Assembly (NCBI GenBank): GCA_903859705.1
Contig: CAIONQ010000126.1
Coordinates: forward strand, 1-61,829
DNA length: 61,829 bases
Direction: 5' to 3'
Source: an uncultured Chthonomonas sp.
GTDB lineage: Bacteria; Armatimonadota; Chthonomonadetes; Chthonomonadales; Chthonomonadaceae
In this document: one piece after another, positions 81-23,224 of the stretch
How the letters are laid out: every line of letters starts with the position of its first letter
How positions within the stretch are numbered: position 1 is the stretch's first letter
The notes under the pieces: generated by a model
What the model saw: the letters and a program-made list of their open reading frames with translations, nothing else
Told to the model about the DNA's origin: nothing
The model's database searches: none
Made by a program: the position numbers and the translations under genes

Positions 81-423
81 ACAAGAAGATACGGATGCCA
101 GAATCAAAAGATTCCCGGACTTAACCCGTCTGAGTAGTTACGCTCAAGAAATAAAAGGCAGAGCACCTTCTGGCCACTTTCCTACGTACCGTGTACTTAG
201 CCATATTATGCATTACCGCCTCCGATTTGCCTGTAAGGCATGTCTTTGCCTGCGATACTCGCAACTGCAGTGGGATCGCATCGCGATCTCAGACGACAAT
301 CGGAACGTATGCGTTACGGAACGACTTCAAAAAGGCATCCCCTTTGCATTGCTGGCTGCGAAGCGTTGTTCCTGCCTACCTCAGCGAAGCTTCCTAACGT
401 CTCCCTCCCGCCCGATGCACATA
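81..423. other. non-coding stretch beside the transposase
   Basis: I see no convincing gene here. The open frames starting at 73, 191 and 240 have low-complexity, cysteine- and arginine-rich translations unlike proteins; the one starting at 240 is only an upstream extension of the gene at 495. Between the transposase start and the promoter at 424 one would expect the end of the insertion sequence. The string GTAACTACTCAGAC (minus strand, about 129-142) is a possible terminal-repeat candidate, but without the other end this cannot be confirmed. Confidence 0.4.
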
Positions 424-452
424 TTGCGCAATTTGCGTGGTTGTTCTATACT
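424..452 (+). promoter_or_regulatory. sigma70-like promoter for the nucleotidyltransferase-uvrA pair
   Basis: TTGCGC at 424-429 and TATACT at 447-452 are separated by 17 bases, a good housekeeping-sigma layout. Transcription would start near 459, about 35 bases before the ATG at 495. A purine-rich GGGAGC at 482-487 can serve as ribosome binding site. Prediction from sequence only. Confidence 0.5.
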
Positions 453-494
453 TGCCCGAGTGTATGTATCGCAATCAGGCAGGGAGCAAACGCG

Positions 495-1463
495 ATGGAC
501 CAGATTAACAACGATGTTCAGGAACGGTACCGGCGTGCATTGGATTCGCTAGTTGGCAAGTTAAAAGAGGACAGCACCGTTCTGGCAGTTGTGCTGATGG
601 GAAGCATGTCTCACGACGTCGTGTGGGAAAAATCGGATATCGATCTGCTAATTGTTACCACCGAAGTAAAGCTCAAAAGCTCCGCCCTGTTTCTTACCGA
701 AGACGATGTAAACATTCACGCGTATTTATACACGCGCTCCGCTTTCCGCAAATCGCTGGATGGCAGCATGCAAAGCACCTTTGTTCACTCTCTGCTTTCG
801 CATGGAACCATGCTTTTCACTCGAGATGTATCCCTGGCAGAGGCCTACGAAGCCCGGCATGAGTATGGTGGTCGCGACCGCATGGCGGTTGCCATGCGGC
901 ACACATCGTGTGTAATTGCACTGCTGGCCAAGGCAGAAAAGTGGCTAACGGTTCGGAGAGATGCCCATTACTGCCTGGTGTACATTCTTACAACGGTGCA
1001 ATACCTGGCTGGCATAGAAACGGCTTTGCAAGGGGAGATTGCCGGTCGAGAAGTTATCCAACAGGCTATCCGGCTCAATCCGCCATTCTTCACCGCCGTA
1101 TACACGCATCTGCTCGAAAATGAACACACTCTGGAGGCTATGCAAACCGCTATTATTGCCATCCAAAAATACTTAAAAACCCGTGCATTTGAAGTGTTTG
1201 TACCTGTATTGGAGTACCTGGAGCAGGAGCGAACTGCCCGTTCTGCTACAGAAATTGCCGATCACTTTGCGCATAACATGCGGGTGGAGGGCGTAGAAAC
1301 ACTCTGTGAATGGCTGGCAGATGAAGGCATCATCCGTAAAATAGCCGTGCCCGTACGCGTTACAGAAAAAAGCAAAATCAGCGTGGAAGAGGCAGCCTAC
1401 TACTTTGATGGCGATATACAAGAGCTGCTGGCCGCCGCCGCCAATAAAGGAGCTGCCAAATGA
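495..1463 (+). CDS. nucleotidyltransferase-domain protein (Pol beta/MNT type) with helical and winged-helix-like C-terminus
   Basis: A 322-residue protein with an N-terminal Pol beta-type nucleotidyltransferase fold: GS at residues 36-37 followed by D48 and D50 ([17 protein letters not shown]), the metal-binding pattern of MNT and kanamycin nucleotidyltransferases. A third carboxylate is not obvious; the expected strand reads NIHAYLY. Residues ~130-230 are helical and loosely HEPN-like. The end (SATEIADHF...[10 protein letters not shown]) looks like a winged helix. The ATG at 495 was chosen because the frame upstream translates to non-protein-like sequence and a purine-rich site precedes it. 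It overlaps the UvrA paralog by 4 bases (ATGA), so the two are translationally coupled. Substrate unknown: it could modify a nucleic acid, a protein or a small molecule. Confidence 0.75.
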
Positions 1464-4330
1464 GAACCTCCATAAGCATTCAGGGCGCACGAGAGCATAA
1501 CCTCAAGAACGTTTCTGTTGAGATCCCGCGAGATCAACTGGTGGTAGTTACAGGGGTTAGCGGCAGTGGTAAATCTTCGCTGGCATTCGATACCATCTAT
1601 GCCGAAGGGCAGCGACGGTACATGGAGTCGCTCTCCTCGTTTGCGAAGCGATTTATCGATCAGGTCCACAAGCCAGATGTGGATTTTATGTTCGGCCTCT
1701 CACCTGTAATCTCCATCGAACAAAAAACAGTGGGACGCAGCCCACGCTCAACCGTAGGCACCCTTACAGATATCAACAGCTACCTGAACCTGCTGTTCTC
1801 ATCCATTGGCCAGGCACACTGCCCGCACTGCCGGAAGCCCATAGCGGTGCGAACGCGCACCCAGATTGTGGAGCAGATTCTGGCTTTGCCAGCTGGTACG
1901 GAACTGGAACTGCGGGCTCCGCTGTTTAAGGTGTACGGCGAAGATCTCAACTATCTGTTTACCGAAGTACGAAAAAAGGGCTACAGGCGTGTGCTACTGG
2001 ATGGCAAGCCAACCGATATTTCAGAAGATCTGGATATAGATGAAGAGAGTGTCCAGCAGTTGGAAGTAATTGTGGATCGCTTTGTGGTGCGGCCAGAAAT
2101 TGAAAAGCAGCTCAAGGTTAGCATTGGCAACGCACTGCTGGTAGGCGAACAGTTCTTATCCTGTATTTTGATATCCTGCCCCTCTGCAGAAGCCGAGAAA
2201 CAGTTTCGGGCAACCGGCGCATGCCCGGATCATCACTATGTGATGGGCGATCTCCAGTCGGAACATTTCATGTTCAACAACCCCTCAAGCGCGTGCCGCA
2301 CTTGCCTGGGATTGGGCACCTACCTGCGCGTGCACCCTACCCTGCTTATCCCCGATCCTGGCCGAAGCATTGAAAATGGTGCTCTGGTTCCTGAGGCGTT
2401 TCGTTACAACCGGGATACCTGGGATGGCAAGCTAATGTACAGCCTTGCAAAAACTTATGGCTTTTCGTTATCCACACCCTGGAACGAGCTATCCCAGGAG
2501 GCTATTAATCTGGTGTTTTATGGCACGCATGGTGAAAAGATTGTGCTGCAAAATCCCGAGGGCGCAAAGACCGAGAACAGCAAGTACACTGGGCAGGAAT
2601 TCCGATTTGAAGGGATCATTCCACGAATTGAGCGTGCCTACCGGCGCTATCGGCAAAGCCAGACCACGCACTCTGGTATGGAAGCCTACCTGGAAAAGGT
2701 GATGGTTGAGTATCTTTGCCCGGATTGTGGCGGCGCACGGGTGCGGTCCCCTCGCCTACTGGTGGAGATAGAAGGCAAGAATGTGTTTGAGGTTGGCGAG
2801 CTCAACTTCGCCGAGCTTCAGGGCTTTCTAAGCAGTATTGAGCACAAAGGGCGAAACCGCGATGCTGGCGATCAGATACTGCGAGAGATACAGTCCAGGG
2901 TGGATCTGCTGCTTGGCATTGGGCTGGATTACCTCAACTTCAATCGTAAATCCGGAACGCTCTCTGGCGGAGAGTCGCAACGCATTCGGCTCTCCACGCA
3001 AATAGGCTCGGGATTAATGGGAATGTTGTATGTGCTGGATGAACCCAGCATTGGCCTGCACCCCAAAGATAACGAGAAGATGATTGCCACACTCAAGCAA
3101 CTGCGCGATCTGGGCAATACGGTTATTGTGGTTGAGCATGACGAGGATACCATTCGCGCCGCAGAGCACATCCTTGAAATGGGGCCCGGAGCGGGCGTTC
3201 ACGGTGGTGAGGTGGTTGCCCAGGGCACTATCGCGGATGTGCTGGCTTGCCCGGCCTCACCCACCGGCCGCTTCTTGAGCGGAACCGAAAAAATTGTAGT
3301 TCCCGCCACGCGCCGCAAAGGCTCAGGCAAAGCGATCACCATTCGGGGAGCCTCAGCGAACAACCTGCAAAACATAACTGTTTCGTTCCCAATGGGTACG
3401 CTTATTGCGGTTACAGGTGCAAGTGGATCTGGTAAGAGCACACTGGTAAATGACATTCTGTTTAACCGCTGCTATGCCCATTTTTACGATAGTCGTGTTC
3501 TCTCTGGCAAACATGAGGGCATTGAGGGCCTGGATAGCATCAAAGATGTCATCGCCATCGATCAATCTCCCATCGGCAGAACTCCGCGCTCCAATCCCGC
3601 CACCTATATTGGCTTTTACGATAATATTCGTAACCTGTTTGCCGCTACAGAGGAGGCCGTAGCCCGCGGATATACGGCATCACGGTTTAGCTTTAACGTT
3701 AAGGGTGGGAGATGTGAGGAGTGTGCGGGAGACGGAACGGTAACTACCCATCTCGGGTTTATGCCAGATGTCGAGGTTCAATGCGAAACCTGCAAGGGCG
3801 CGCGCTATAATGCCGAAACTCTGGAGGTTTTGTACCATGGTAAAACCATTTCAGATATCTTGAACATGTCTATCGAAGAAGGCTCGGTGTTCTTTAAAGA
3901 TCAACCCTCTATCTGCCGAAAAATTCAGATATTAAACGACCTGGGGCTGGGCTACATTACACTCGGCCAGAGCGCCACTACTCTCTCTGGCGGCGAGGCG
4001 CAGCGCATAAAGCTGGCGAGCGAGCTGAGCAAATTACGGCGAGGGGGCTCGATACTGTACATTCTGGATGAACCCACCACGGGGCTGCACCTTGCGGATA
4101 TTGTGCGCCTAATAGACTGCATGCAGCGCCTGGTGGATGCTGGCCACAGCGTTATCGTAATCGAACACCATCTGGATGTGATCAAAACTGCCGACCACGT
4201 GATAGATCTTGGTCCCGAAGGCGGGCACAGGGGCGGAGAGATCCTGTTTGAAGGCACGCCAGAAGGGCTAATGGCCTGCACAAATTCCTACACGGGCCAG
4301 TTTCTTGCCAGGCACGTCGCCGCTTCCTAA
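1460..4330 (+). CDS. UvrA-family ABC ATPase, paralog of the canonical excinuclease subunit
   Basis: A 956-residue duplicated ABC ATPase of the UvrA family. First Walker [10 protein letters not shown] at ~32-40; signature [11 protein letters not shown] and [10 protein letters not shown] in half one; second Walker [10 protein letters not shown]; signature [11 protein letters not shown] and LDEPTTGLH in half two. The C-terminal zinc hairpin is intact (CEEC...CETC). The first zinc module is altered: C255-x2-H258...C279-x2-C282 instead of two CxxC pairs. Family knowledge: UvrA recognises bulky DNA lesions with UvrB; paralogs of this kind (UvrA2-like) may help tolerate DNA-damaging drugs or act with other partners. 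The true uvrA is at 30044-33034, so this copy is accessory. It is translationally coupled to the upstream nucleotidyltransferase, a pairing worth following up. Confidence 0.88.
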
Positions 4331-4511: not shown

Positions 4512-7205
4512 ATGTCCGACCGACAGTTGATCCTATCCAGACATCCCGCACGTGTGATTGGCGATTGCCAGCATGCGCTGCTGATCTGCCCTGGCGATAT
4601 TGCCGCACGCCAGCTTGGCCGGCCCCCTTTAAGCCTGGATGAAATTTCAGCACAGATATTGGAGCGCAACGGCATTACGCTCGCCCCCGAACATGTGGTG
4701 CTGCGCGTGGCTGCATCTCTGCTTAAGCAGAAGCTAAAAACGGAAGATACAACCGGCATGGCGCGCGCCATGCTGCCTGCAATCAACACTCTGTTGCGAT
4801 CCGGGGCAGACCTGTTTGCCCTATCCCGCGCAATTAGAGGCCGCCCACTGCTGATTACAGAAACTGCCGACCTGCTACGCGGCCACCTTGCAGAAAACCA
4901 CATGTGTGCCCGTCCGGATGCAATAACGCAGGCTGGCGCCCGGCATTTTGAGGATACATTTGTAGCACCGATTGTGGTCTACGGCTATGCCCGGCTATCG
5001 ATGGCAGAATGCCTGCTGGTCGATAAAATAGCCGCCAGCGGCAGCCGCATTGTTCTGCCGGGCACGCCGGGCAACCCCTTGTTTGGAGATAACCACTCAG
5101 CAGCCGAATTCCTGAAGAAGCGCGGCTGGAACGTGACCTACTCGGAAGTTGCCCCAACAACTCCCGGCGAGCAGGCAGCCGATGCCTTCCTGGGTCTGCC
5201 CGCAGATATCAAAGGAATTACCGCGCAAAGCTTCCCCACCCCGGAAGAAGAGGTCCGTGCAGTGTTACGCCACATTAAACTGGCGTTGCTTAATGGCAAA
5301 TATGGCGTTCACGATGTTGCGCTGGTGGCCCGCACAGAAAGCACCTATGGGGAACTGGTGCGGGAGATTGCGTGGGAGTACGAAATGCCCGTGGTTACCC
5401 ACTACGGCATTAGCCTGCTGGAAACACGCGCCGGCCAGTGGCTGAATAGCCTGCTGGAGATTGCAGAGGAAGGCACCTACCCCTTCGAGGCCACAGCACG
5501 CCTTTTTCAGCATGCCCTTGGCAACCGCTTACGCTTTAAAGGGGATACCGAGCGCCTGGATAGCAAGCAGTGGGAAACCGCACGTAAGGGTCACTCCCGA
5601 GGTGCCGAGATGTGGGATCAACATGGTCTGGATGTCTCCTGCATAGCATGGCCACGAGAAGACACGCGCAAGGGGTGGTGCGATCGCATCCGCGCCGCGA
5701 TGGTAACTCTGAACCTGCGAGAGCTTAGCCTGGAACGTGCGCAGGACCTGATCGCCTATCGACGCCTTACCGAAGCCCTGGATGAGTTTGCCCTACCAAC
5801 CGGCGAACTGCTATCTCGTTCTGAGTTTACCTCTCAGCTCCAGGATCTTCTGCGCATCACCAGTGTGCCCAGCGGTGCTGGCTCTGCCGGGTTGGAGGTG
5901 CATACGCCGCTTTCGCTATATGGCGCACGCGTGCCTCATCTGTTTGTGCTTGGCGAGGCCGAGGGCGAGCTGCCACGGCCCGTTTCTGAAGACCCCATGC
6001 TAGACTTTCACGATCGCAAAGTACTTACAGAAACAGGGCACATTCACCTGGAAAGCGCTGCGCAGGCCGCCCGCCGGGAAACCCTCTCTTTCTACTCCCT
6101 GCTGCTTGCCGCAGGCTCATCGCTCAGCTTTTCGTACCAACGCATGGAGGGCACCGCCGCCGTACGACCCAGCCCATTTATTGCACGTATCGGCCTCAAC
6201 GTAATTCATCAAGATGCGTACCCCGAGATTGCTGCCAGCAGGGCAGAGCTTCTTATGGGTGAGCTTGCAGCCGCACCAGCCAAAGAGGACAATGACTTTA
6301 CCCGGCAAGCAAGGCTTGCCGTTGCAGTGGTAGAGCGGCGAGAGAGCTGTGCAGAAATCGATGCCTACACAGGGGATGTAGGGGTACCACAAGATCCAGA
6401 GAAGATGGTGTTTAGCCCCTCTCAGTTCAACACATTCGGGCAGTGCAGTTACCACTGGTTTGCCAACAGGCTGTTGAAGATGCGCGATCCGGATGAGGCA
6501 GACGATGACCTTGCCGCGGATGTGAAAGGCACTCTGTTTCACGCCGTACTGGCGAAACTCGCTGACGAGTGTAAGGACATGCCAGATGTAACCGCCCAGA
6601 TGCTAATCCGCCTCGAAGCTGCATTTGACGAAGCTGCCTCCGGCGCGGCAGAGCTGCTCAGGCTGCCAGGCTGGGCTGGCAGGCGATACGAACTGATTGC
6701 ACAGCTGCAAAAGGCGATATCTGGCGAAGAGTTTTTGCCTGCGGGATCGCACATTCTGCTAACTGAACAAAAGGTAACCGGACAGATCCATGGCCTGCGG
6801 GTTGTGGGAACTGTAGACCGCATAGATAGCGTGGAAGGCGGCTTGAAGGTAGTAGATTATAAAACCTCCAGCACCAGTCCAAAAGGAGTTAAGGATGATA
6901 GCGGCAATCTGAAAACAGACGTACAATTGCCCGTTTACATGCACCTTGCGGCACAGGCGGCGCGCGGCCACGGCAGCGTGGTAAGCGGGGCCTACTACTC
7001 ACTTACTAAAGGCAGCGTTCTGGACACCGCAACACCGGATATCGAACCGCTAATTCCACTTACCGATAAGATAAAGCAATCCATTCGCATGGGTTTATAT
7101 CCGGTAGATCCCGACTCAAAAGAGCAGGCATGCAGCTACTGTGAGCTGGATATACTGTGCCGAAAGGGCCCCTACCTGCACCGTAAATCGGAGGAAACGC
7201 AATGA
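4512..7205 (+). CDS. addB: AddB-like nuclease subunit with iron-sulfur PD-(D/E)XK domain
   Basis: An 897-residue protein resembling the AddB/RexB subunit of the double-strand-break resection complex. It has no Walker A motif near its start, as expected for the inactivated helicase fold of AddB. The C-terminal third is a RecB-type nuclease: FSPSQFNTFGQCSY at ~637-647, GTVDRID, VVDYKTS (D782, K784), and cysteines C645...C874-x2-C877-x5-C883, the arrangement that holds a 4Fe-4S cluster in AddB. It is shorter than Bacillus AddB (about 1,160 residues). It overlaps the helicase gene by 4 bases (ATGA at 7202). The complex would unwind and degrade broken DNA ends in the cytoplasm to load RecA. Symbol assigned by architecture and gene order, not by close identity. 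Confidence 0.8.
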   Translation: MSDRQLILSRHPARVIGDCQHALLICPGDIAARQLGRPPLSLDEISAQILERNGITLAPEHVVLRVAASLLKQKLKTEDTTGMARAMLPAINTLLRSGADLFALSRAIRGRPLLITETADLLRGHLAENHMCARPDAITQAGARHFEDTFVAPIVVYGYARLSMAECLLVDKIAASGSRIVLPGTPGNPLFGDNHSAAEFLKKRGWNVTYSEVAPTTPGEQAADAFLGLPADIKGITAQSFPTPEEEVRAVLRHIKLALLNGKYGVHDVALVARTESTYGELVREIAWEYEMPVVTHYGISLLETRAGQWLNSLLEIAEEGTYPFEATARLFQHALGNRLRFKGDTERLDSKQWETARKGHSRGAEMWDQHGLDVSCIAWPREDTRKGWCDRIRAAMVTLNLRELSLERAQDLIAYRRLTEALDEFALPTGELLSRSEFTSQLQDLLRITSVPSGAGSAGLEVHTPLSLYGARVPHLFVLGEAEGELPRPVSEDPMLDFHDRKVLTETGHIHLESAAQAARRETLSFYSLLLAAGSSLSFSYQRMEGTAAVRPSPFIARIGLNVIHQDAYPEIAASRAELLMGELAAAPAKEDNDFTRQARLAVAVVERRESCAEIDAYTGDVGVPQDPEKMVFSPSQFNTFGQCSYHWFANRLLKMRDPDEADDDLAADVKGTLFHAVLAKLADECKDMPDVTAQMLIRLEAAFDEAASGAAELLRLPGWAGRRYELIAQLQKAISGEEFLPAGSHILLTEQKVTGQIHGLRVVGTVDRIDSVEGGLKVVDYKTSSTSPKGVKDDSGNLKTDVQLPVYMHLAAQAARGHGSVVSGAYYSLTKGSVLDTATPDIEPLIPLTDKIKQSIRMGLYPVDPDSKEQACSYCELDILCRKGPYLHRKSEETQ

Positions 7206-10200
7206 CAGCCCTCACAAACGAGCCCATCGAGCCAGAGCATGTTGCCATCCGTGCGGGCGCCGGTGCCGGCAAAACCACGCGCATAACGCGCCGATACATA
7301 AATCATGTACTGCAGCATGGGCTATCGCCGTTACAGATTGTGGCCGTAACCTTTACCGATGCCGCCGCAATGGAGTTGCGCTCTCGCATTCGGGAGAAGC
7401 TTACCGAAGCCCTTGGAACGGATGACGATAGGCTGGCAGAGTTGGAGGCAGCGCGTATATGCACCTTCCATGCACTTGCGGCCGCCATCTGTCGACAGCA
7501 CCCTCTGGAAGCCGGAGTGCCGGCAGATTTTGCCCTGCTGGATGAAGTGCAGGGCGCATTGTGGGCTGCAGATCACCTGGATGATGCCCTGGATAGCCTC
7601 CCGGCTACTCTGTTTAGTCGGGTGCCATTCACAGGGATGCGAACCATTTTGCGCAGGTTAATGCAGGATCCTATTGCTGCCGAAGAGGCGTTTAAAGCAG
7701 ATCCAGAGGCAACCACTGCGGCAATGGAACAGGCACGCTTCAGGGCCATCGAACAGCTGATTACCGCCCCCGAGTTCATGGATGGCGTTCAGTTCTTAAA
7801 AGTGCATACTGGCGATGGGGCAGACTTATTGGAGCCGATGCGCCAGAAAATGCTGGAGGTAGCCGCTCAGCTGGAGGCAGGCAACACAACAGATACAGCC
7901 GAGCTTGTACAGCAAATAAAGCTAACCGGAGGGCAGCAGAAGAACTGGATTGGCGTAACCCCAAAAGAGATTAGGGAATGCATAAAGCTGCTGCGTGGCA
8001 GTGTGAGCAATGCCCTTACCCAGGGAGTAATTACCCTTAGCCAGGGCCCAGCCGATTTGGAAATGCAAGATCGCCTTACAGATGTGCAAGAAGCGTACAC
8101 GCTGGTTCAACAAAAGCTGAACGAGGCAAAGCGCAGAGACCGCGTGCTGGATTTTAACGATCTGGAAGTGCATGCCCTGCAGGCCCTGGAGAGCCTGCAT
8201 GTTCGTCGCTTCTATCACGAACGTTGGAAGGCCTTTGTGGTGGATGAGTATCAGGATACCAACACCGTGCAAGATCAAATCCTACACCGCCTGAGAGCGC
8301 CAGATGCACGCCAGGCGATTGTTGGCGATGCCAACCAGAGCATCTATGGCTTCCGCAGGGCCGACCCTACCCTGATCGATACCGCCAGCAAATCTATTGC
8401 CGATAAGCAGGGCGTGCTGGAGCTGCTTAAAACCAACTACCGAACACACGGCCTGCTGGTAGAGGAGCTAAACAGCCTGTTTGTGCACATGTTTGCTGCC
8501 GCCACCCAGAGCTTCACCCCGCAGGAAAGCAAGCGCTCCGCACCGCCATCTGCCCAGAACGGAAACTGGATGCGTGTGATTCAGATAGATGCGGAAAAGG
8601 GCACCAGCAATCGGCAAGAGCGCGCCTACCATGAAGCACGCCTGATCGCCGCAGAGCTTAAGCAGCTATTTGAGAGTGGAATGCAGATAAACGACCGTAG
8701 CACCGGAGATCTACGCCCATTGCAATGGTCGGATATCGCCGTTATTAGCCGCACATGGGACTCCCTGGATTTTTACGAAACAGCCTTCGGCGAGTTCGGT
8801 ATCCCCAGCGTCCACATGGGCGGCGGCAACCTCATCAACACACGAGAGGCAAGAGATGGCTGTACGCTGCTTCGATTCCTCGCCGATCCTCAAGATAACC
8901 TGGCGCTCGCAGCCCTGCTCAAGAGCCCGTTCTTCTCTTTCAGCGATACACAGCTGTTTAACCTTCGGCAGGGATACCGGGATATCAGCCTTTGGGAAGC
9001 ATTGAAGATTAGCCACGACCAATCCGAGTCTGCCGAAAAGCTGCAGCGCTGGCTCAACTGTCGAACTTCAGAGGCTCCGTCTCGCCTGGTGCATCGGGCG
9101 GATATCGAATGTGGCTACTCCGCCATTCTCAGGGCGCTGCCAAATGGCGAAAGGCGCCTTGCAGATTGGCGCGCCTTTCAAGATCTGGTCGGAAGCATAG
9201 AGAAAACCAGCTTTGATGCTTTTAGCGTTTCACGCGTGCTTCGCCGGCTGGATATGGCCCGCGCAGATAGAACCATGCGTGTGGATGTGCCCCGGCCACC
9301 CCTGGAGGCGGGCAACGCAATAAGTCTGATGACAATTCACCGCAGCAAAGGCCTTGAATGGCCCGTAGTGATTATGGCGGACCTTGGCAAACAGGCCCAG
9401 AGCGATACCAGCACGCTGTACTGTGACCCTCAGCTTGGAATAGCGCTAAAATCCACAGGCAAAGAAAAGGACGAAGAACAGCCTGCGCTTTACCTGTACC
9501 TTAAGTATCTGCAGGCACAGCGAGAGGCCGCCGAGCAGCGCCGGCTGCTATATGTCGCGGCAACCCGTGCCCGAGACTTTCTGTTTATGGTTGCCGCAAC
9601 CGAAAACGGTGCAAGCAGCAGTACCAGCAGCTGGAGAGTGCTGGAGCCATCCATACAGGCGATAGGCAAAAGCGTGGAACTGCATGCCCATACCTCCGGC
9701 GGTACGGGTCAGCGAACAATGCTGCCACCGAACCCCCTACGGCCCGCCCCACTGCAGGCATTGGGCCCGATAGAGGCAACCCCTACCCGATTACCAGCCA
9801 CCAGCCTCAGCACCTACCGTAGCTGCCCTAAGCGCTTCGAGTTTCAGTTTGTACTGGGCCACCCTGGCCTTGGCGAAGGCGATGACCTTTATGCCCGGCG
9901 CGGAACGCTGGTGCACAAAGCAATACAGTTTGATATCAAAACCGAGGCAGTCCTGCAGCGATACGATAGATCACTCGCCGCCGAAACGGTTAAAGAAGCG
10001 CTTGCCCTGGCGAACGTGTACCGGGAAGATGGTTTCTACGCACGCTACAGAATCGCCGAAACGGTATTTGAAGAGCCAGTAACCGTAGAGATGGGCGGGA
10101 TCACCATTGTTGGGCGTATCGACATGCTTGGCCCAGATTTCGTTCTGGATTTCAAAACCGGGCAACGCAAAAACGAAGAAGAGTACCTTCTGCAGCTATG

Positions 10201-10450
10201 GATATACGGGGTAGCCAGGCAGCGAGAAGAGCTGGTAATCTGCTACTTCGATAGTGGCAAACCAACGTTACGTCAGCGCTCCGAAATGCACGACGCCGAG
10301 GAAACAATACAGGCAATAACAGCAGGCATACGCGCACGCAACTTCAAAGCCACCCCTTCGGCAAGAGCGTGCGAGTACTGCCGTTACAGAGCCCTCTGCC
10401 CGGACAAGGTGGCCGTGGAAAGTAAGGAACGGGAGAACAGCGGAACGTAG
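7202..10450 (+). CDS. addA: AddA-like UvrD-family helicase fused to PD-(D/E)XK nuclease
   Basis: A 1082-residue superfamily 1 helicase. Walker A GAGAGKTTR (K24), motif II VVDEYQDTN (D348, E349), motif III GDANQSIYGFRRADP, motif IV TNYRTHG, motif V TIHRSKGLEWPVV, motif VI YVAATRARD. The last ~200 residues are a RecB-type nuclease (GRIDML, VLDFKTG with D983 and K985). Unusually for an AddA subunit, this domain also has four cluster-type cysteines: C875...C1057-x2-C1060-x5-C1066. In well-studied AddAB only the AddB nuclease has the iron-sulfur cluster. Translationally coupled to the AddB-like gene. Expected role: 3'-5' translocation and resection of double-strand breaks. A phylogenetic assignment to another two-subunit RecB-like family is possible. 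Confidence 0.85.
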   Translation: MTALTNEPIEPEHVAIRAGAGAGKTTRITRRYINHVLQHGLSPLQIVAVTFTDAAAMELRSRIREKLTEALGTDDDRLAELEAARICTFHALAAAICRQHPLEAGVPADFALLDEVQGALWAADHLDDALDSLPATLFSRVPFTGMRTILRRLMQDPIAAEEAFKADPEATTAAMEQARFRAIEQLITAPEFMDGVQFLKVHTGDGADLLEPMRQKMLEVAAQLEAGNTTDTAELVQQIKLTGGQQKNWIGVTPKEIRECIKLLRGSVSNALTQGVITLSQGPADLEMQDRLTDVQEAYTLVQQKLNEAKRRDRVLDFNDLEVHALQALESLHVRRFYHERWKAFVVDEYQDTNTVQDQILHRLRAPDARQAIVGDANQSIYGFRRADPTLIDTASKSIADKQGVLELLKTNYRTHGLLVEELNSLFVHMFAAATQSFTPQESKRSAPPSAQNGNWMRVIQIDAEKGTSNRQERAYHEARLIAAELKQLFESGMQINDRSTGDLRPLQWSDIAVISRTWDSLDFYETAFGEFGIPSVHMGGGNLINTREARDGCTLLRFLADPQDNLALAALLKSPFFSFSDTQLFNLRQGYRDISLWEALKISHDQSESAEKLQRWLNCRTSEAPSRLVHRADIECGYSAILRALPNGERRLADWRAFQDLVGSIEKTSFDAFSVSRVLRRLDMARADRTMRVDVPRPPLEAGNAISLMTIHRSKGLEWPVVIMADLGKQAQSDTSTLYCDPQLGIALKSTGKEKDEEQPALYLYLKYLQAQREAAEQRRLLYVAATRARDFLFMVAATENGASSSTSSWRVLEPSIQAIGKSVELHAHTSGGTGQRTMLPPNPLRPAPLQALGPIEATPTRLPATSLSTYRSCPKRFEFQFVLGHPGLGEGDDLYARRGTLVHKAIQFDIKTEAVLQRYDRSLAAETVKEALALANVYREDGFYARYRIAETVFEEPVTVEMGGITIVGRIDMLGPDFVLDFKTGQRKNEEEYLLQLWIYGVARQREELVICYFDSGKPTLRQRSEMHDAEETIQAITAGIRARNFKATPSARACEYCRYRALCPDKVAVESKERENSGT

Positions 10451-18895: not shown

Positions 18896-19214
18896 CGCAA
18901 AAGATGCCTCTCTAAGCCTGGCAGCAGGTGTAAAAGTATGGATGAATTGTACCTTATCCGTCTCGAGGCAGTCGGCGGCGGATGTTGAAGGATTGTTTGT
19001 CGGCTCACAGATAAACTGACCGGGGCTGTTACATCGGTTTTGATTAAATAGGCTGGCAATTTTCTATAACCGCATCAAAGCTCAGCATTCTCTGCGACAA
19101 ACGCCGGATTCAACACCTCATAATAGGTATCAAGAATCTACCCGTCACCATACTGTGTGTGTGGATTGTATGTATGGGCGGCGGCAGCATAGAAATGTAT
19201 GGAAGGAAAGCAGT
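18896..19214. other. divergent intergenic region
   Basis: It separates the minus-strand NAD synthetase operon from the plus-strand cytochrome operon. It holds the promoter candidate at 19040-19069; no gene or RNA is evident. The 5' end of the downstream open frame (19155-19214) translates to unlikely protein sequence. Confidence 0.4.
19040..19069 (+). promoter_or_regulatory. promoter candidate for the DUF1592/DUF1552 operon
   Basis: TTGATT (19040-19045) and CTATAA (19064-19069) are 18 bases apart. This leaves a leader of about 140 bases before the coding region. The fit to consensus is moderate. Confidence 0.3.
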
Positions 19215-21893
19215 TTGCGCTCCCAACCCAATTCCCAGCAACATAAAATCAGGCGAGGCACAGGCACTGTGCGTGCTGCCGCCCTGTTAGGTGGACCTGC
19301 ACTTGCCAGCGCGGCGCTTATTGGTGCAGCGGGCCTTGCCGGTGCGCCATCAGCAACACTACCTGCACTCGCGCAGCAAGATTCCCAGGCACTTCCTGCA
19401 GCCACGGTTGCTTTCATTAGTAAGAACTGTGTTTCTTGCCATGGCAAACAGAGCCCGGCCGGAGCACTGGATATTGCTGCCGCTGTTAAGGCTTTTAAGC
19501 CTTCCGATGCGAAGAGCTTTGGCGTATGGGTTAAGATCCACGACCGTGTGGCTGCAGGTGAGATGCCTCCAAAAGGCAGCGGAACGGTGGCAGCAGCACC
19601 AAAATCTGCTTTTATCGCTTCCGTTGCTAACCGGCTGAATTATGCCAGCGCAGTTCGTGTGCACCGAGATGGCCGTGCCGTTTGGCGCCGCATGAATCGG
19701 TACGAGTATGAAAATTCACTCCGAGATTTGCTGGATGCGCCCTGGCTGCAGGTTAAGCCAATGCTGCCAGAGGATGGACTGGCCTACAGGTTGAACAAAT
19801 CTGGAGAAGCGCTGGATGTATCCCATGTGCAGATTAACCGGTACCTATCCGCGGCAGACTATGCACTGCGTGAGGTGATACCCTCTAGCACAGAGAGGCC
19901 CGTAGGTAAGGTAACGCGTTACTATGCCCGTGAAATGGGATCGTTTGCCGGGCTTGCAAAGTTTAACGAATTTAATGGCTCGCCAGAGCGTGCAACCTTC
20001 CCCATAATTGGCAATGAGGCCGATGTGCCTGCCTTAACGGAGAAGGCACCGATGACGGTTGGCGCAGCCAACCCAGAGAAGCGCGAGCAGGAATCCATTG
20101 GCGTGGTGGCAAGTGCCTACGAGCCAATACAGCCGTACTTCGATCATTTCTATGCGCCCATATCCGGCCATTATAAACTGAGGCTGCGCACCCACACATT
20201 CTGGGCACATCCGCAGGATAACCGCCGCTGGTGGACCCCAAGCCGAACCAATGTATCGGCGGGCCGCACACAGGAGCCTGTTAGCCTCTATGCCCTGCGG
20301 CACCCACAACAGCTTCGCAAGTTGGGCGATGTGGATTCGTTCCCCAACCCTACCACGGGCGAAATTGATGCTTACTTAATTAAAGGCGAAACGGTTTTGC
20401 CGGATGCTGCACGCTTCTTCCGATCTCGCCCGCCCGGCTGGCACAATCCCCTGGCAGAGAGAGATGGGCAGCCTGGGGTAACCTTTCACTGGCTCGAGGT
20501 TGAAGGGCCAATACTGGATGGCGACAGGTGGCCAGGAAAGGGGCAGCAGCTTCTTTTTGGAGACCTGCCACTAAAGGCGGCAGGCGGTAGCGTGGACGTG
20601 GTATCTGCTAATGAAGATGCCGATGCAGCAAAACTGATTGCTGCATTTATGAAGCGTGCCATTCGTCGGCCCGTTAAGCAAACAGAGATAGACCCCTTTG
20701 TGGCGCTATACCACAAAGCCAGAACATCCGGCGTGAGCTTTAAGGATGGCATCCTTACCGCATACACCGGCGTGCTGTGCAGCCCGGCATTTGTAACATT
20801 GGAAGAGCGCCCAGGACCGTTGGATGACTGGGCCCTGGCAACCCGCCTCAGCTATTTTATATGGAACAGTGAGCCAGATGCAGAACTGCGGCGAGCGGCA
20901 GATGCGCATCAGCTTCATCTGCCAGCCGTGCTGCTAAAGCAAACCGACCGCCTGCTGACCAATCCGAAGTCCAAGCGCTTTGTAGATGCCTTTCTGGATT
21001 ACTGGCTGGACCTCAGGAAGGCCGAGAATGCCTCGCCAGATGAGGTGCTTTATCCGGATTACTACCTGGATGACTACCTGGTGCAGTCTTCCGTAGAAGA
21101 GACACGCGCATTTTTTGCCGAACTGCTGCACAGCAACTTACCGGCACGCAACCTGGTAGATAGCGATTTCGTTACCGTGAACGACAGAATTGCATCGCTT
21201 TATGGACTTCCAGATGTAAAAGGCGCGGCTTTCCGGAAGGTTCCGCTGCCAAAGGGCTCCGTTCGAGGGGGCCTCATAACGCAATCCAGCGTGCTTAAAG
21301 TAACGGCAAACGGAACCACCACTTCGCCCGTTTTGCGAGGCGTGTGGATTACAGAGCGTATACTGGGCCAGCCTGTTCCACCACCTCCACCAGCGGTTCC
21401 AGCTGTAGAGCCAGATATTCGCGGTGCCTCCACCATACGGGAGCAATTGGATAAGCATAGAACACTTGCTGCCTGCAAATCTTGCCATGCCCGCATCGAT
21501 CCGCCAGGCTTTGCACTGGAGAGCTTTGATGTGTTCGGAGGGTACCGAGATCATTACCGCGCCCTGGGTGATGGCAAACGCACACCGGGGTTTGGTAAGA
21601 ACGGCCAGCCGTTCACTTTTCACGATGCGCTGCCCGTGGATGCCTCCGGGGATCTTACCGATGGCAGGCACTTTGCCGATGTTCGAGGCCTCAAACAGCT
21701 GATATTGCAGGATCAGAGGCAGATAGCGCGTAATCTTGTACGGCAGCTTGTAACCTACTCTACCGGAGCACCGGTGCAATTTGGAGACAGGCAGACCGTG
21801 GAAGCCATATTGGACCAGTCTAAGGCAGACGGATACGGGGTTCGAACCCTCATCCATGCCATCGTCAAAAGCGAACTATTCAGGAACAAGTAA
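19215..21893 (+). CDS. secreted DUF1592/DUF1588-family cytochrome c-like protein
   Basis: About 892 residues. A signal segment ([19 protein letters not shown]) precedes a heme c motif, [11 protein letters not shown]. Then come PSD-type domains in the usual order: DUF1587 ([20 protein letters not shown]), DUF1595 ([15 protein letters not shown]), DUF1592 ([15 protein letters not shown]), DUF1588 ([14 protein letters not shown] with [20 protein letters not shown], a second CxxCH) and DUF1585 at the end ([16 protein letters not shown]). The start is uncertain: I prefer TTG at 19215, preceded by GGAAGGAAAG; ATG 19170 and GTG 19155 are alternatives. Biochemical role unknown; these proteins are probably periplasmic redox partners or hydrolytic complexes. 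Operon with the DUF1552 gene 5 bases downstream. Confidence 0.88.
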
Positions 21894-21898
21894 CAAGC

Positions 21899-23224
21899 AT
21901 GAAACCTGTGCATATACAATCTGGTTCGAAAGCCATTTCACGGCGACACTTGCTGCGCGGCGCCGGCGTACTGCTGGGCTTGCCGCTGCTGGATGCTATG
22001 ATCCCGGCATTTGCCTCAGCGGATCCGACTAAGCTGGCCCCTGCGCGCTTCCTCGGCATCTGCAACAATCTGGGCCTGGTTCCGGATAAGTTCTTTCCAG
22101 ATCCCGCACTGGCTGGCCGCAACTACAAGCTCTCGCCGTATCTGGAGCATCTGAAAGCGCATCAAAACGATTTCACGCTCTTCAACGGCGTATCCCACCC
22201 GGATGTGGATGGTGGGCACCCGGCAGATATCTGCTTCCTTACAGCCGCACCCCACCCCTCCAGCGGTGGCTTTCATAACACAATTTCGCTGGATCAATAT
22301 ATTTCAGAGCGCGTTGGGTATCAAACACGCTTCCCATCGTTAACCCTCGGCGTTAACGTAGGCGGCGTACGTAGCCTATCCTGCACTGCAGGCGGTGTGC
22401 TGCTGCCGCAAGAGGAAAAGGCAAGCGAAGTGTTCCGCAAGCTGTTTCTTGGTGGCTCTCCGCAAGAGGTTCAGGAACAATCTCGCAAGCTGGCACTTGG
22501 TCAGAGCATTATGGACACCATTGGCGAACAGACTAAGAACCTCTCTCGTAGCGTTGGTGCAAGGGATAAAGAACGGCTGGATCAGTACTTTACCGGCGTG
22601 CGCGAGCTTGAACAGCGCCTGGTAATGTCGGCTGATTGGGAGAAAAAGCCCCGCCCTGTCACCACTGAAAAAATGCCAATTGATCCCAAAGACCCGCGCG
22701 AATACATGGAAAAGGTGCGTCTGATGTATGACATGGCGCGCCTGGCTTTTGCCACAGACTCGACACGCTGCATTACCCTGATGATGGATAGCGTGAACTC
22801 GCCTGCAATTGAGGTTGAGGGAAAGACGGTATCCGACGGGTACCACAACCTCTCACACCACGGGCAAAATCCAGACAAGCTGGCACAGTTGGATCGCATT
22901 GATCGTGAGCACATGAAACTGCTGGCCGGGCTGTATGGTGGATTGAAGGCAGAAAAAGAGGGAAACGAGTCGCTATTCGATCACACCATGGTACTTTACG
23001 GCAGCAACCTCGGCAACGCAAACACGCACGTAACCACCAACCTGCCTGTGATTTTCGCAGGTGGCGGCTTCCAGCACGGCCAATATCTGGTATTCGACAG
23101 AGAGCGCAATTACCCGCTGCCCAACCTGTTTGTGAATGTGCTGCACAGATTCGGAATTGAAACAGATAAGTTTGCATCCAGCACCGGCACAATGCGGGGT
23201 CTGGAGATGCGCAAAACAGTTTGA
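21899..23224 (+). CDS. Tat-exported DUF1552 protein
   Basis: A 441-residue protein with a twin-arginine signal ([18 protein letters not shown]) and the DUF1552 hallmark H-x2-S-H-H ([14 protein letters not shown]). It also carries [25 protein letters not shown] and the C-terminal [14 protein letters not shown]1552 proteins are metal-binding-looking secreted proteins related to the alkaline-phosphatase/sulfatase-like DUF1501 group and almost always follow a DUF1592 cytochrome, as here. Activity not established. Confidence 0.9.

What the first reader, a model, noticed from the sequence alone, without database searches (positions are those of the whole stretch)
9824..10399. AddA-like subunit also carries four iron-sulfur-type cysteines
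C875...C1057-x2-C1060-x5-C1066 in the helicase subunit copies the AddB pattern C645...C874-x2-C877-x5-C883 in its partner. In Bacillus AddAB only AddB has the cluster. A two-cluster resection complex may be an unusual AddAB branch.
Basis: partly seen in the sequence, partly recalled or inferred. Interest (0 to 1): 0.5.

Follow-up and report, generated by a model that had tools for sequence, protein, structure and literature searches.

The report
AddAB repair enzyme with two cysteine staples
This bacterial DNA-break-processing enzyme carries the four-cysteine set for an iron-sulfur cluster in both of its subunits instead of one, a real and conserved feature that also occurs in several other bacterial groups although the textbook Bacillus enzyme lacks it.

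Summary
The AddA-type subunit (7202-10450) has C875, C1057, C1060 and C1066, and its AddB partner (4512-7205) has C645, C874, C877 and C883, in the same order and spacing. Both sets flank an intact PD-(D/E)XK nuclease core and align column by column with each other (hhalign E 3.9e-30); the AddA set also aligns with AdnA of the PDB. Among 184 AddA-like frames, 42 have all four, 105 have a nuclease with none, 4 are mixed and 33 show no nuclease. So AddA is very probably a second 'iron staple' nuclease. Metal binding is untested, and cysteine distances could not be measured because model coordinates are not returned. 'Unusual' is only half right: AddA quartets also occur in several families of this phylum, in Ignavibacteriota, some Bacillota and Myxococcota/delta-type genomes, and on cyanobacterial and Deinococcus plasmids. 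All 29 AddB seen beside a quartet AddA carry staple cysteines (28 full, 1 cut by the locus end). The window pair does belong to a distinct branch with a P-loop-less AddB, often on plasmids, in which Thermus lost the AddA quartet. The single-cluster Bacillus form may be derived. New variant of a known kind, moderate interest.

The parts
7202..10450 (+). AddA-type subunit, 1082 aa: UvrD-family SF1 motor (P-loop AGAGAGKT at residue 18) plus C-terminal PD-(D/E)XK nuclease
   Evidence: Pfam UvrD-helicase, UvrD_C and PDDEXK_1; NCBIfam addA_Gpos 1.6e-90 but below that model's cut-off; top structural match of the model is an AddAB A chain, 4ceh_A, Z 32.0, 935 aligned, rmsd 21.9 over the whole flexible chain; P-loop
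9797..10402 (+). PD-(D/E)XK nuclease domain of AddA (residues 866-1067)
   Evidence: PF12705 over cut-off; H905, E957, D974, D983, K985, Q998, Y1002 invariant in 15 of 15 branch members
9824..9826 (+). C875, N-terminal staple cysteine
10370..10399 (+). C1057-x2-C1060-x5-C1066, C-terminal staple triple
   Evidence: the AddA nuclease profile aligns this triple to CANCPVRSSC of AdnA (6ppu_A)
4512..7205 (+). AddB-type subunit, 897 aa, no P-loop; its stop overlaps the AddA start (ATGA at 7202-7205)
   Evidence: PDDEXK_1 6.9e-36; NCBIfam addB_Gpos 5.5e-19, below cut-off; the five top structural matches are AddAB B chains, Z 25.1-25.9, e.g. 4ceh_B 807 aligned, rmsd 10.7; no GK[ST] anywhere in the protein
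6411..7163 (+). PD-(D/E)XK nuclease domain of AddB with the staple quartet C645, C874, C877, C883
1460..4330 (+). UvrA-type protein upstream; also upstream in the same-genus genome; membership of the system not claimed
   Evidence: Pfam UvrA domains; 77% identical frame upstream of the AddB frame in G001, with other frames between

Best explanation
The pair is an AddAB-type DNA-end resection enzyme with one SF1 motor (AddA) and two nuclease domains with intact active sites, each of the 'iron staple' kind, in which one cysteine before the nuclease core and three after it hold a 4Fe-4S cluster that clamps the two ends of the domain together. Shown here: the genes, their overlap, intact catalytic motifs, both quartets, their homology and co-conservation. 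From knowledge of the family (recalled unless a paper is cited in the report): the AddA motor unwinds from a break, the AddA nuclease cuts the 3'-ended strand and the AddB nuclease the 5'-ended strand, and the AddB cluster is needed for end binding. Inferred: AddA's own cluster stabilises the 3'-strand nuclease. Inferred: the AddA quartet was inherited from the common ancestor of AddA and AddB nuclease domains and has been lost as a whole several times (Bacillus type, Thermus).
For: Quartet positions; two PDDEXK_1 domains; profile-profile alignment of A and B nuclease domains with all four cysteines in register, E 3.9e-30; AdnA aligned through all four, while the matches to the AddAB A chain and to AdnB stop before the triple; structural alignments reach model residue 1069 with AdnA (6ppr_A Z 24.1, 541 aligned, rmsd 17.6) and 1076 with AddB (3u4q_B Z 19.7, 773 aligned, rmsd 19.2) but 1024 with the AddAB A chain 4ceh_A; quartet present or absent as a set, 42 and 105 against 4 mixed, with a median of 104 (39 rows) against 62 (99 rows) residues after the last DxK-type motif; AddB nucleases are one clade apart from all AddA nucleases in the tree, so the AddA quartet is not a recent copy from AddB; both catalytic sites intact in the branch.
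Against: No metal was measured; the same four-cysteine arrangement binds zinc in a DUF3799 protein (PMC3466216, passages) and [2Fe-2S] in one Cas4 (PMC4176176, title and abstract start). Cysteine distances were not measured; the structural alignments have large overall rmsd. The set-wise pattern is not significant once relatedness is allowed for: 4 independent pairs agree, 0 oppose, 2 show no difference, p 0.125. Counts of changes cannot tell gain from loss. Thermus AddA keeps its catalytic residues without the quartet, so the staple is not indispensable for an AddA nuclease; conversely one quartet AddA of 42 (L132) has altered catalytic positions. The genome holds a further AddA/AddB-like pair on other contigs, so which pair does the cell's resection is unknown.
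Confidence: 0.77

Rival explanations
1. The AddA quartet binds zinc, or no metal in the cell, and acts only as a structural knot; only AddB carries a cluster.
For: A four-cysteine RecB-like nuclease with zinc in place of Fe-S is described in PMC3466216 (passages); across the 42 quartet AddA the triple's spacing is loose, x2-5 then x4-10 (list).
Against: In the window's branch AddA spacing is the same x2/x5 as in the window's AddB and in AdnA, except x4 in L115; a partial f17 frame not placed on the tree (L119) has x7.
Confidence: 0.15
2. The AddA nuclease domain was copied from an AddB-like or Cas4-like gene in this lineage, so the second quartet is a recent acquisition.
For: The two quartets look alike in the window (C-x2-C-x5-C in both).
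Against: AddB nucleases are one clade (99*, 17 rows) that excludes the 40 quartet AddA domains and 33 cluster-less AddA domains in the tree; the window's AddA and AddB domains each group with their own kind. Cas4 itself was not in that tree.
Confidence: 0.06
3. The pair is mainly a plasmid- and defence-type DNA degradation module rather than a repair enzyme.
For: Best matches in the plasmid collection cover 92-98% of AddA (25 rows listed of 141 records). Of 9 of those loci that I opened, 8 are annotated, and 5 of the 8 have CRISPR, BREX, McrC, restriction or AIPR genes within 5 kb. addAB loss in T. thermophilus raises transformation about 1000-fold (PMC9751324 abstract).
Against: No plasmid background rate was measured. 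The window pair sits near UvrA and a Pol-beta-type gene, as in the same genus, and the family f17 neighbours that Pfam named are metabolic or transport genes. PADLOC gives AddA RTasHel and GajB helicase hits (25 of 52 families shown) and AddB Cas4-type ones, shared-domain matches rather than a system. The T. thermophilus abstract also reports damage sensitivity.
Confidence: 0.2

Closest known systems
Bacillus subtilis AddAB (3u44, 3u4q, 4ceh; organism from the papers, not from the PDB tables)
   Same: Subunit order, one UvrD-type motor, two PD-(D/E)XK nucleases, AddB staple quartet; top structural match for both subunits
   Different: Its AddA ends before the triple (profile match stops at chain residue 1231 of 1232); its AddB chain has 1166 residues against 897; 4 of 4 Bacillus-relative AddB that I checked have a P-loop, the window's has none
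Mycobacterial AdnAB (6ppu, 6ppr, 7sjr)
   Same: AdnA nuclease domain aligned over its whole length with all four cysteines; that AdnA binds an Fe-S cluster is recalled
   Different: The profile match to AdnB stops before the triple; both Adn subunits have motors (recalled), whereas no P-loop was found in AddB of this branch
Cas4, Dna2 and ACE1 iron-staple nucleases
   Same: Matched by the AddA nuclease profile or the AddB model; same 1+3 cysteine arrangement described for Cas4 and Dna2 (passages)
   Different: Not part of an AddA/AddB heterodimer
UvrD-Cas4 fusion proteins (PMC5704561, section 8 read)
   Same: SF1 UvrD-type helicase fused to a PF12705 nuclease
   Different: Described as stand-alone or in restriction-modification or Dcm/Vsr contexts; no AddB partner is mentioned there
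Picosynechococcus PCC 7002 pAQ6 WP_012308552/WP_012308553
   Same: Same branch, both quartets, AddA 36% identical
   Different: On a mobilizable plasmid among toxin-antitoxin genes; I made no literature search for it

Membership tests
AddAB-type helicase-nuclease | AddA: SF1 UvrD motor plus C-terminal PD-(D/E)XK nuclease | tested here: met
   structural match 4ceh_A Z 32.0, 935 aligned, rmsd 21.9 over the whole chain, and 4cej_A Z 31.9, 801 aligned, rmsd 3.4 over residues 2-840
AddAB-type helicase-nuclease | Adjacent AddB with a helicase-like fold and an iron-staple nuclease | tested here: met
   structural match 4ceh_B Z 25.9, 807 aligned, rmsd 10.7
AddAB-type helicase-nuclease | Curated NCBIfam addA/addB equivalog cut-offs | tested here: not met
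   addA_Gpos 304.5 bits against 707.65; addB_Gpos 67.4 against 903.7. These models are narrow: AddA of L040 (Ignavibacteriales, 315.1 bits) and L218 (G662, 237.9 bits) also fall short
AddAB-type helicase-nuclease | Break resection modulated by Chi | not testable with these tools
   needs purified enzyme
Iron-staple nuclease (AddB, Cas4, Dna2, AdnA) | One N-terminal and three C-terminal cysteines spanning a PD-(D/E)XK core with H, D, (D/E)xK, QxxxY | tested here: met
   AddA and AddB both
Iron-staple nuclease (AddB, Cas4, Dna2, AdnA) | The four cysteines meet in space | tested here: inconclusive
   model m877b3da54af9 made but no coordinates are given; support is only by alignment with solved relatives
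Iron-staple nuclease (AddB, Cas4, Dna2, AdnA) | Bound 4Fe-4S cluster | not testable with these tools
   needs purified protein
AdnAB | P-loop motor in both subunits (recalled) | tested here: not met
   no P-loop in window AddB or 16 other AddB of the branch; all 15 AddA of the branch have one, as do 4 of 6 comparison AddB
UvrD-Cas4 fusion | Stand-alone or in R-M/Dcm-Vsr loci | tested here: not met
   overlapping AddB gene; no R-M, Dcm or Vsr family among the 12 window proteins between 240 and 23221 that I scanned with Pfam

The most novel reading that the evidence does not exclude
Two staples are the ancestral state of AddAB, and the Bacillus enzyme on which the field's model rests has lost one. 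In the single-motor branch of the window the AddA cluster makes the 3'-strand nuclease depend on an oxidation-sensitive cofactor, so that loss of the cluster would switch the enzyme from two-strand DNA destruction to 5'-strand resection, a Chi-independent control; Thermus has fixed the cluster-free AddA.
Probability: 0.2. Interest if true: 0.65.

Novelty: new variant of a known kind. Interest (0 to 1): 0.38.

Why it matters
AddAB is modelled on Bacillus, where one subunit has the staple. If many AddAB enzymes carry two staples and the Bacillus form is reduced, the role of the cluster (clamp, DNA-end binding, redox sensing) can be tested separately in each strand's nuclease, using natural pairs with and without the AddA quartet in one branch (cyanobacterial or Deinococcus plasmids against Thermus).

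Tried and rejected
Domain swap from AddB was tested and disfavoured. Chance was tested by shuffling. An 'A-only' state was suspected in Ignavibacteriota, where the gene upstream of AddA is a histidine kinase in the 2 loci scanned, and rejected: 4 of 4 genomes searched have an AddB on another contig with full quartet and catalytic residues. A first reading that ignavibacterial AddB lacks DxK, from a regular expression, was wrong; the profile alignment shows D and K. A P-loop pattern missed 2 of 15 AddA, so I repeated it with a looser pattern, which found all 15 AddA and still no P-loop in 17 AddB; the Thermoflavimicrobium AddB (L033) and the partial L034 AddB frame have none either, so the lack is not peculiar to this branch. 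The first single-protein genome-contig scan found no relatives.

Limits of the survey: it is not an even sample. AddA-like frames were those of at least 385 bits against profile A2, with contained or repeated frames dropped, 184 kept of 250 hits; per search only the best 2-30 places became loci; 33 of the 184 had no nuclease hit, some because the frame is cut. 'Quartet' means a cysteine at the N-terminal profile column plus a C-x2-5-C-x3-10-C in the tail. The helicase tree used 180 of 184 rows, the nuclease tree 40 of 42 quartet rows, every third of the 105 others (33 used) and 17 AddB; trees are FastTree or quick IQ-TREE with long branches and no outgroup. Fisher's p of 2e-32 ignores relatedness; the corrected pair test is not significant. 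The plasmid loci opened were 9 of the 25 listed.

Literature: searches listed no paper whose title or shown abstract start describes an AddA cluster (one listed none at all); main texts were seen only as passages, one section and one full abstract. Yeeles et al. 2009, the key paper, is not held, so this is no proof that a two-cluster AddAB is unpublished.
Full report
What was checked. The AddA-type frame 7202-10450 (1082 aa) has cysteines 875, 1057, 1060, 1066 with codons at 9824, 10370, 10379, 10397; the AddB-type frame 4512-7205 (897 aa) has 645, 874, 877, 883. The AddB stop overlaps the AddA start (ATGA at 7202-7205), so the two are probably translated together. A C-x2-C-x5-C arises in 24 of 20,000 shuffles of AddA and 29 of 20,000 of AddB.

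What the proteins are. AddA: UvrD-helicase, UvrD_C and PDDEXK_1 (residues 866-1067); AddB: PDDEXK_1 (634-884). NCBIfam addA_Gpos and addB_Gpos are the top models but score far below their cut-offs. AF2 models (AddA mean pLDDT 77.4; AddB 66.5) match AddAB A chains (4ceh_A Z 32.0, 935 aligned, rmsd 21.9) and B chains (4ceh_B Z 25.9, 807 aligned, rmsd 10.7) first. The AddA alignment with the AddAB A chain ends at model residue 1024, those with AdnA and AddB at 1069 and 1076: the stretch after 1024 holds the triple. Overall rmsd values are large because whole flexible chains are aligned.

Homology of the quartets. An alignment of 21 AddA nuclease domains from six sampled groups, chosen for having the quartet, lines up C875, C1060 and C1066 in all and C1057 in at least 90%. 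Profile against profile, AddA and AddB nuclease domains align with all four cysteines in register (E 3.9e-30). Against the PDB the AddA profile aligns AdnA through its N-terminal CP and its CANCPVRSSC triple; the match to the AddAB A chain ends with that chain, and the match to AdnB stops before the triple.

Survey. Of 184 AddA-like frames kept, 42 have the quartet, 105 have a nuclease without it, 33 have no nuclease hit (some are cut), and 4 are mixed. One of the 42 (L132) has altered catalytic positions. Quartets by set: own phylum including the window 21 of 48 (loci); phylum of an ignavibacterial genome 9 of 15; phylum of Thermoflavimicrobium 4 of 29; of a myxococcal/delta-type genome 3 of 21; of a Trueperaceae genome 1 of 9; of a Hydrogenedentota genome 0 of 24; named GTDB genomes 4 of 38; tallies. 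With an AddB seen in the locus: quartet AddA with full-quartet AddB 28 of 29 (the 29th AddB is cut; its N-terminal cysteine is seen in a longer locus), while 13 quartet AddA had none in the locus; cluster-less AddA with quartet AddB 76 of 91, with cluster-less AddB 11 of 91, with partial AddB 4 of 91, none seen for 14. No quartet AddA with a cluster-less AddB was seen. In a re-run with a lower threshold and 28 pairs, AddB's catalytic D/D/K is intact in 27; the exception is Thermoflavimicrobium. The all-together pattern is strong if rows are taken as independent but not significant after correction for relatedness (4 pairs agree, 0 oppose, 2 neutral, p 0.125).

The window's branch. Closest relatives: same genus G001 (AddA 47-49%), family f17 of the same phylum (32-38%), G662 from the Trueperaceae set (36%), and plasmids of Kovacikia minuta (38.9%), Picosynechococcus (36%), Thermus (32-34%) and Deinococcus (30%). 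They form a 98* branch of 21 rows in the helicase tree, with the nuclease columns left out: 13 with the quartet, 5 Thermus-type without, 3 without a nuclease. In 15 AddA of the branch the quartet is complete in 13 and wholly absent in the 2 Thermus plasmid copies; AddB has its quartet in 17 of 17; catalytic residues are intact in all of these. None of the 17 AddB has a P-loop, all 15 AddA do, so this is a single-motor, two-nuclease enzyme. AddB is 820-1062 aa as open frame, against a 1166-residue solved AddB chain.

Gain or loss. AddB nucleases form one clade apart from all AddA nucleases, so quartets in AddA are not recent copies. As AddB, AdnA and Cas4 also carry the staple, the simplest reading is an ancestral staple in AddA lost in blocks: the Bacillus type, the Hydrogenedentota set, the two alphaproteobacteria sampled and Thermus. 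The fewest changes between quartet and none are 6 in the 72-row tree and 7 in the 180-row tree; direction is inferred, not shown.

Genome setting. The same genome has, on other contigs, a nuclease-less AddA-like gene (C133, 915 aa) and an AddB-like gene (C163, 954 aa) whose catalytic positions read Q and I in a weak alignment while the triple is kept and no N-terminal cysteine was found. Nuclease-less AddA-like genes are usual in the family. The window pair therefore looks like a second AddAB, the one with both active sites intact. Upstream lie UvrA and a Pol-beta-type gene, also upstream in G001. On plasmids the branch keeps other company: Cas3 (T. thermophilus JL-18), BrxB/BrxC (Deinococcus QL22), McrC (NW-56), a restriction endonuclease (T. 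brockianus), AIPR and toxin-antitoxin genes (PCC 7002), DUF499/WYL (D. psychrotolerans); NIES-970 has one toxin-antitoxin-like gene, D. actinosclerus transposases, and Kovacikia no annotation. No background rate was measured.

Function. Thermus AddAB sequences fall in this branch. For T. thermophilus HB27 the abstract of PMC9751324 reports more damage sensitivity and about 1000-fold more transformation without addAB; a discussion passage of the same paper says that sensitivity is not significantly higher and that the mutants carry further mutations. I did not check that HB27's own gene is in the branch. This fits, loosely, an end-degrading resection enzyme that also destroys incoming DNA. In Bacillus the cluster is needed for end binding (passage of PMC4176176) and called critical for domain integrity (passage of PMC7430649, which also says that iron-staple domains seem to be rare in nature). 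The counts here suggest that they are not rare among AddA proteins. A zinc form of the same fold exists (PMC3466216 passages).

Verdict. Real, conserved, very probably a second staple; recurring in several groups rather than unique; the Bacillus state is possibly reduced. New variant of a known kind.

Noticed in passing
G000:C133 (L256 6029-8773 -) and G000:C163 (L264 1357-4218 +): The window's genome has a second AddA/AddB-like pair on two other contigs: AddA without a nuclease domain, and AddB with changed catalytic positions in a weak alignment but a kept cysteine triple. G003 AddB (L269) is also catalytically altered with all four cysteines kept, which would fit a role for the staple without cleavage.
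   Followed up: partly
L292, L296 (Thermus plasmids): Thermus AddA of this branch has lost N-terminal cysteine and C-terminal tail together while keeping the catalytic residues: a natural cluster-free comparison.
   Followed up: partly
L033 2792-5947: Thermoflavimicrobium AddB keeps four staple cysteines but has lost aligned catalytic residues and has no P-loop, while its AddA keeps quartet and catalytic residues.
   Followed up: no
L289, L292, L293, L295, L297: Plasmid-borne members of the branch sit beside AIPR and toxin-antitoxin genes, CRISPR Cas3, BREX, WYL/DUF499 or McrC genes.
   Followed up: partly
G000:C39:7139-7861 (L261): A stand-alone 284-residue PF12705 nuclease frame with its own CADCDFLSRC triple, Cas4-like in size.
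   Followed up: no
window 240-4330: A Pol-beta-type nucleotidyltransferase frame overlaps the start of the UvrA-type gene; the two are also neighbours in the same genus (58% and 77% identity).
   Followed up: no
window 19155-23224: A DUF1592-type protein with a planctomycete-type cytochrome C domain, followed by a DUF1552 protein.
   Followed up: no
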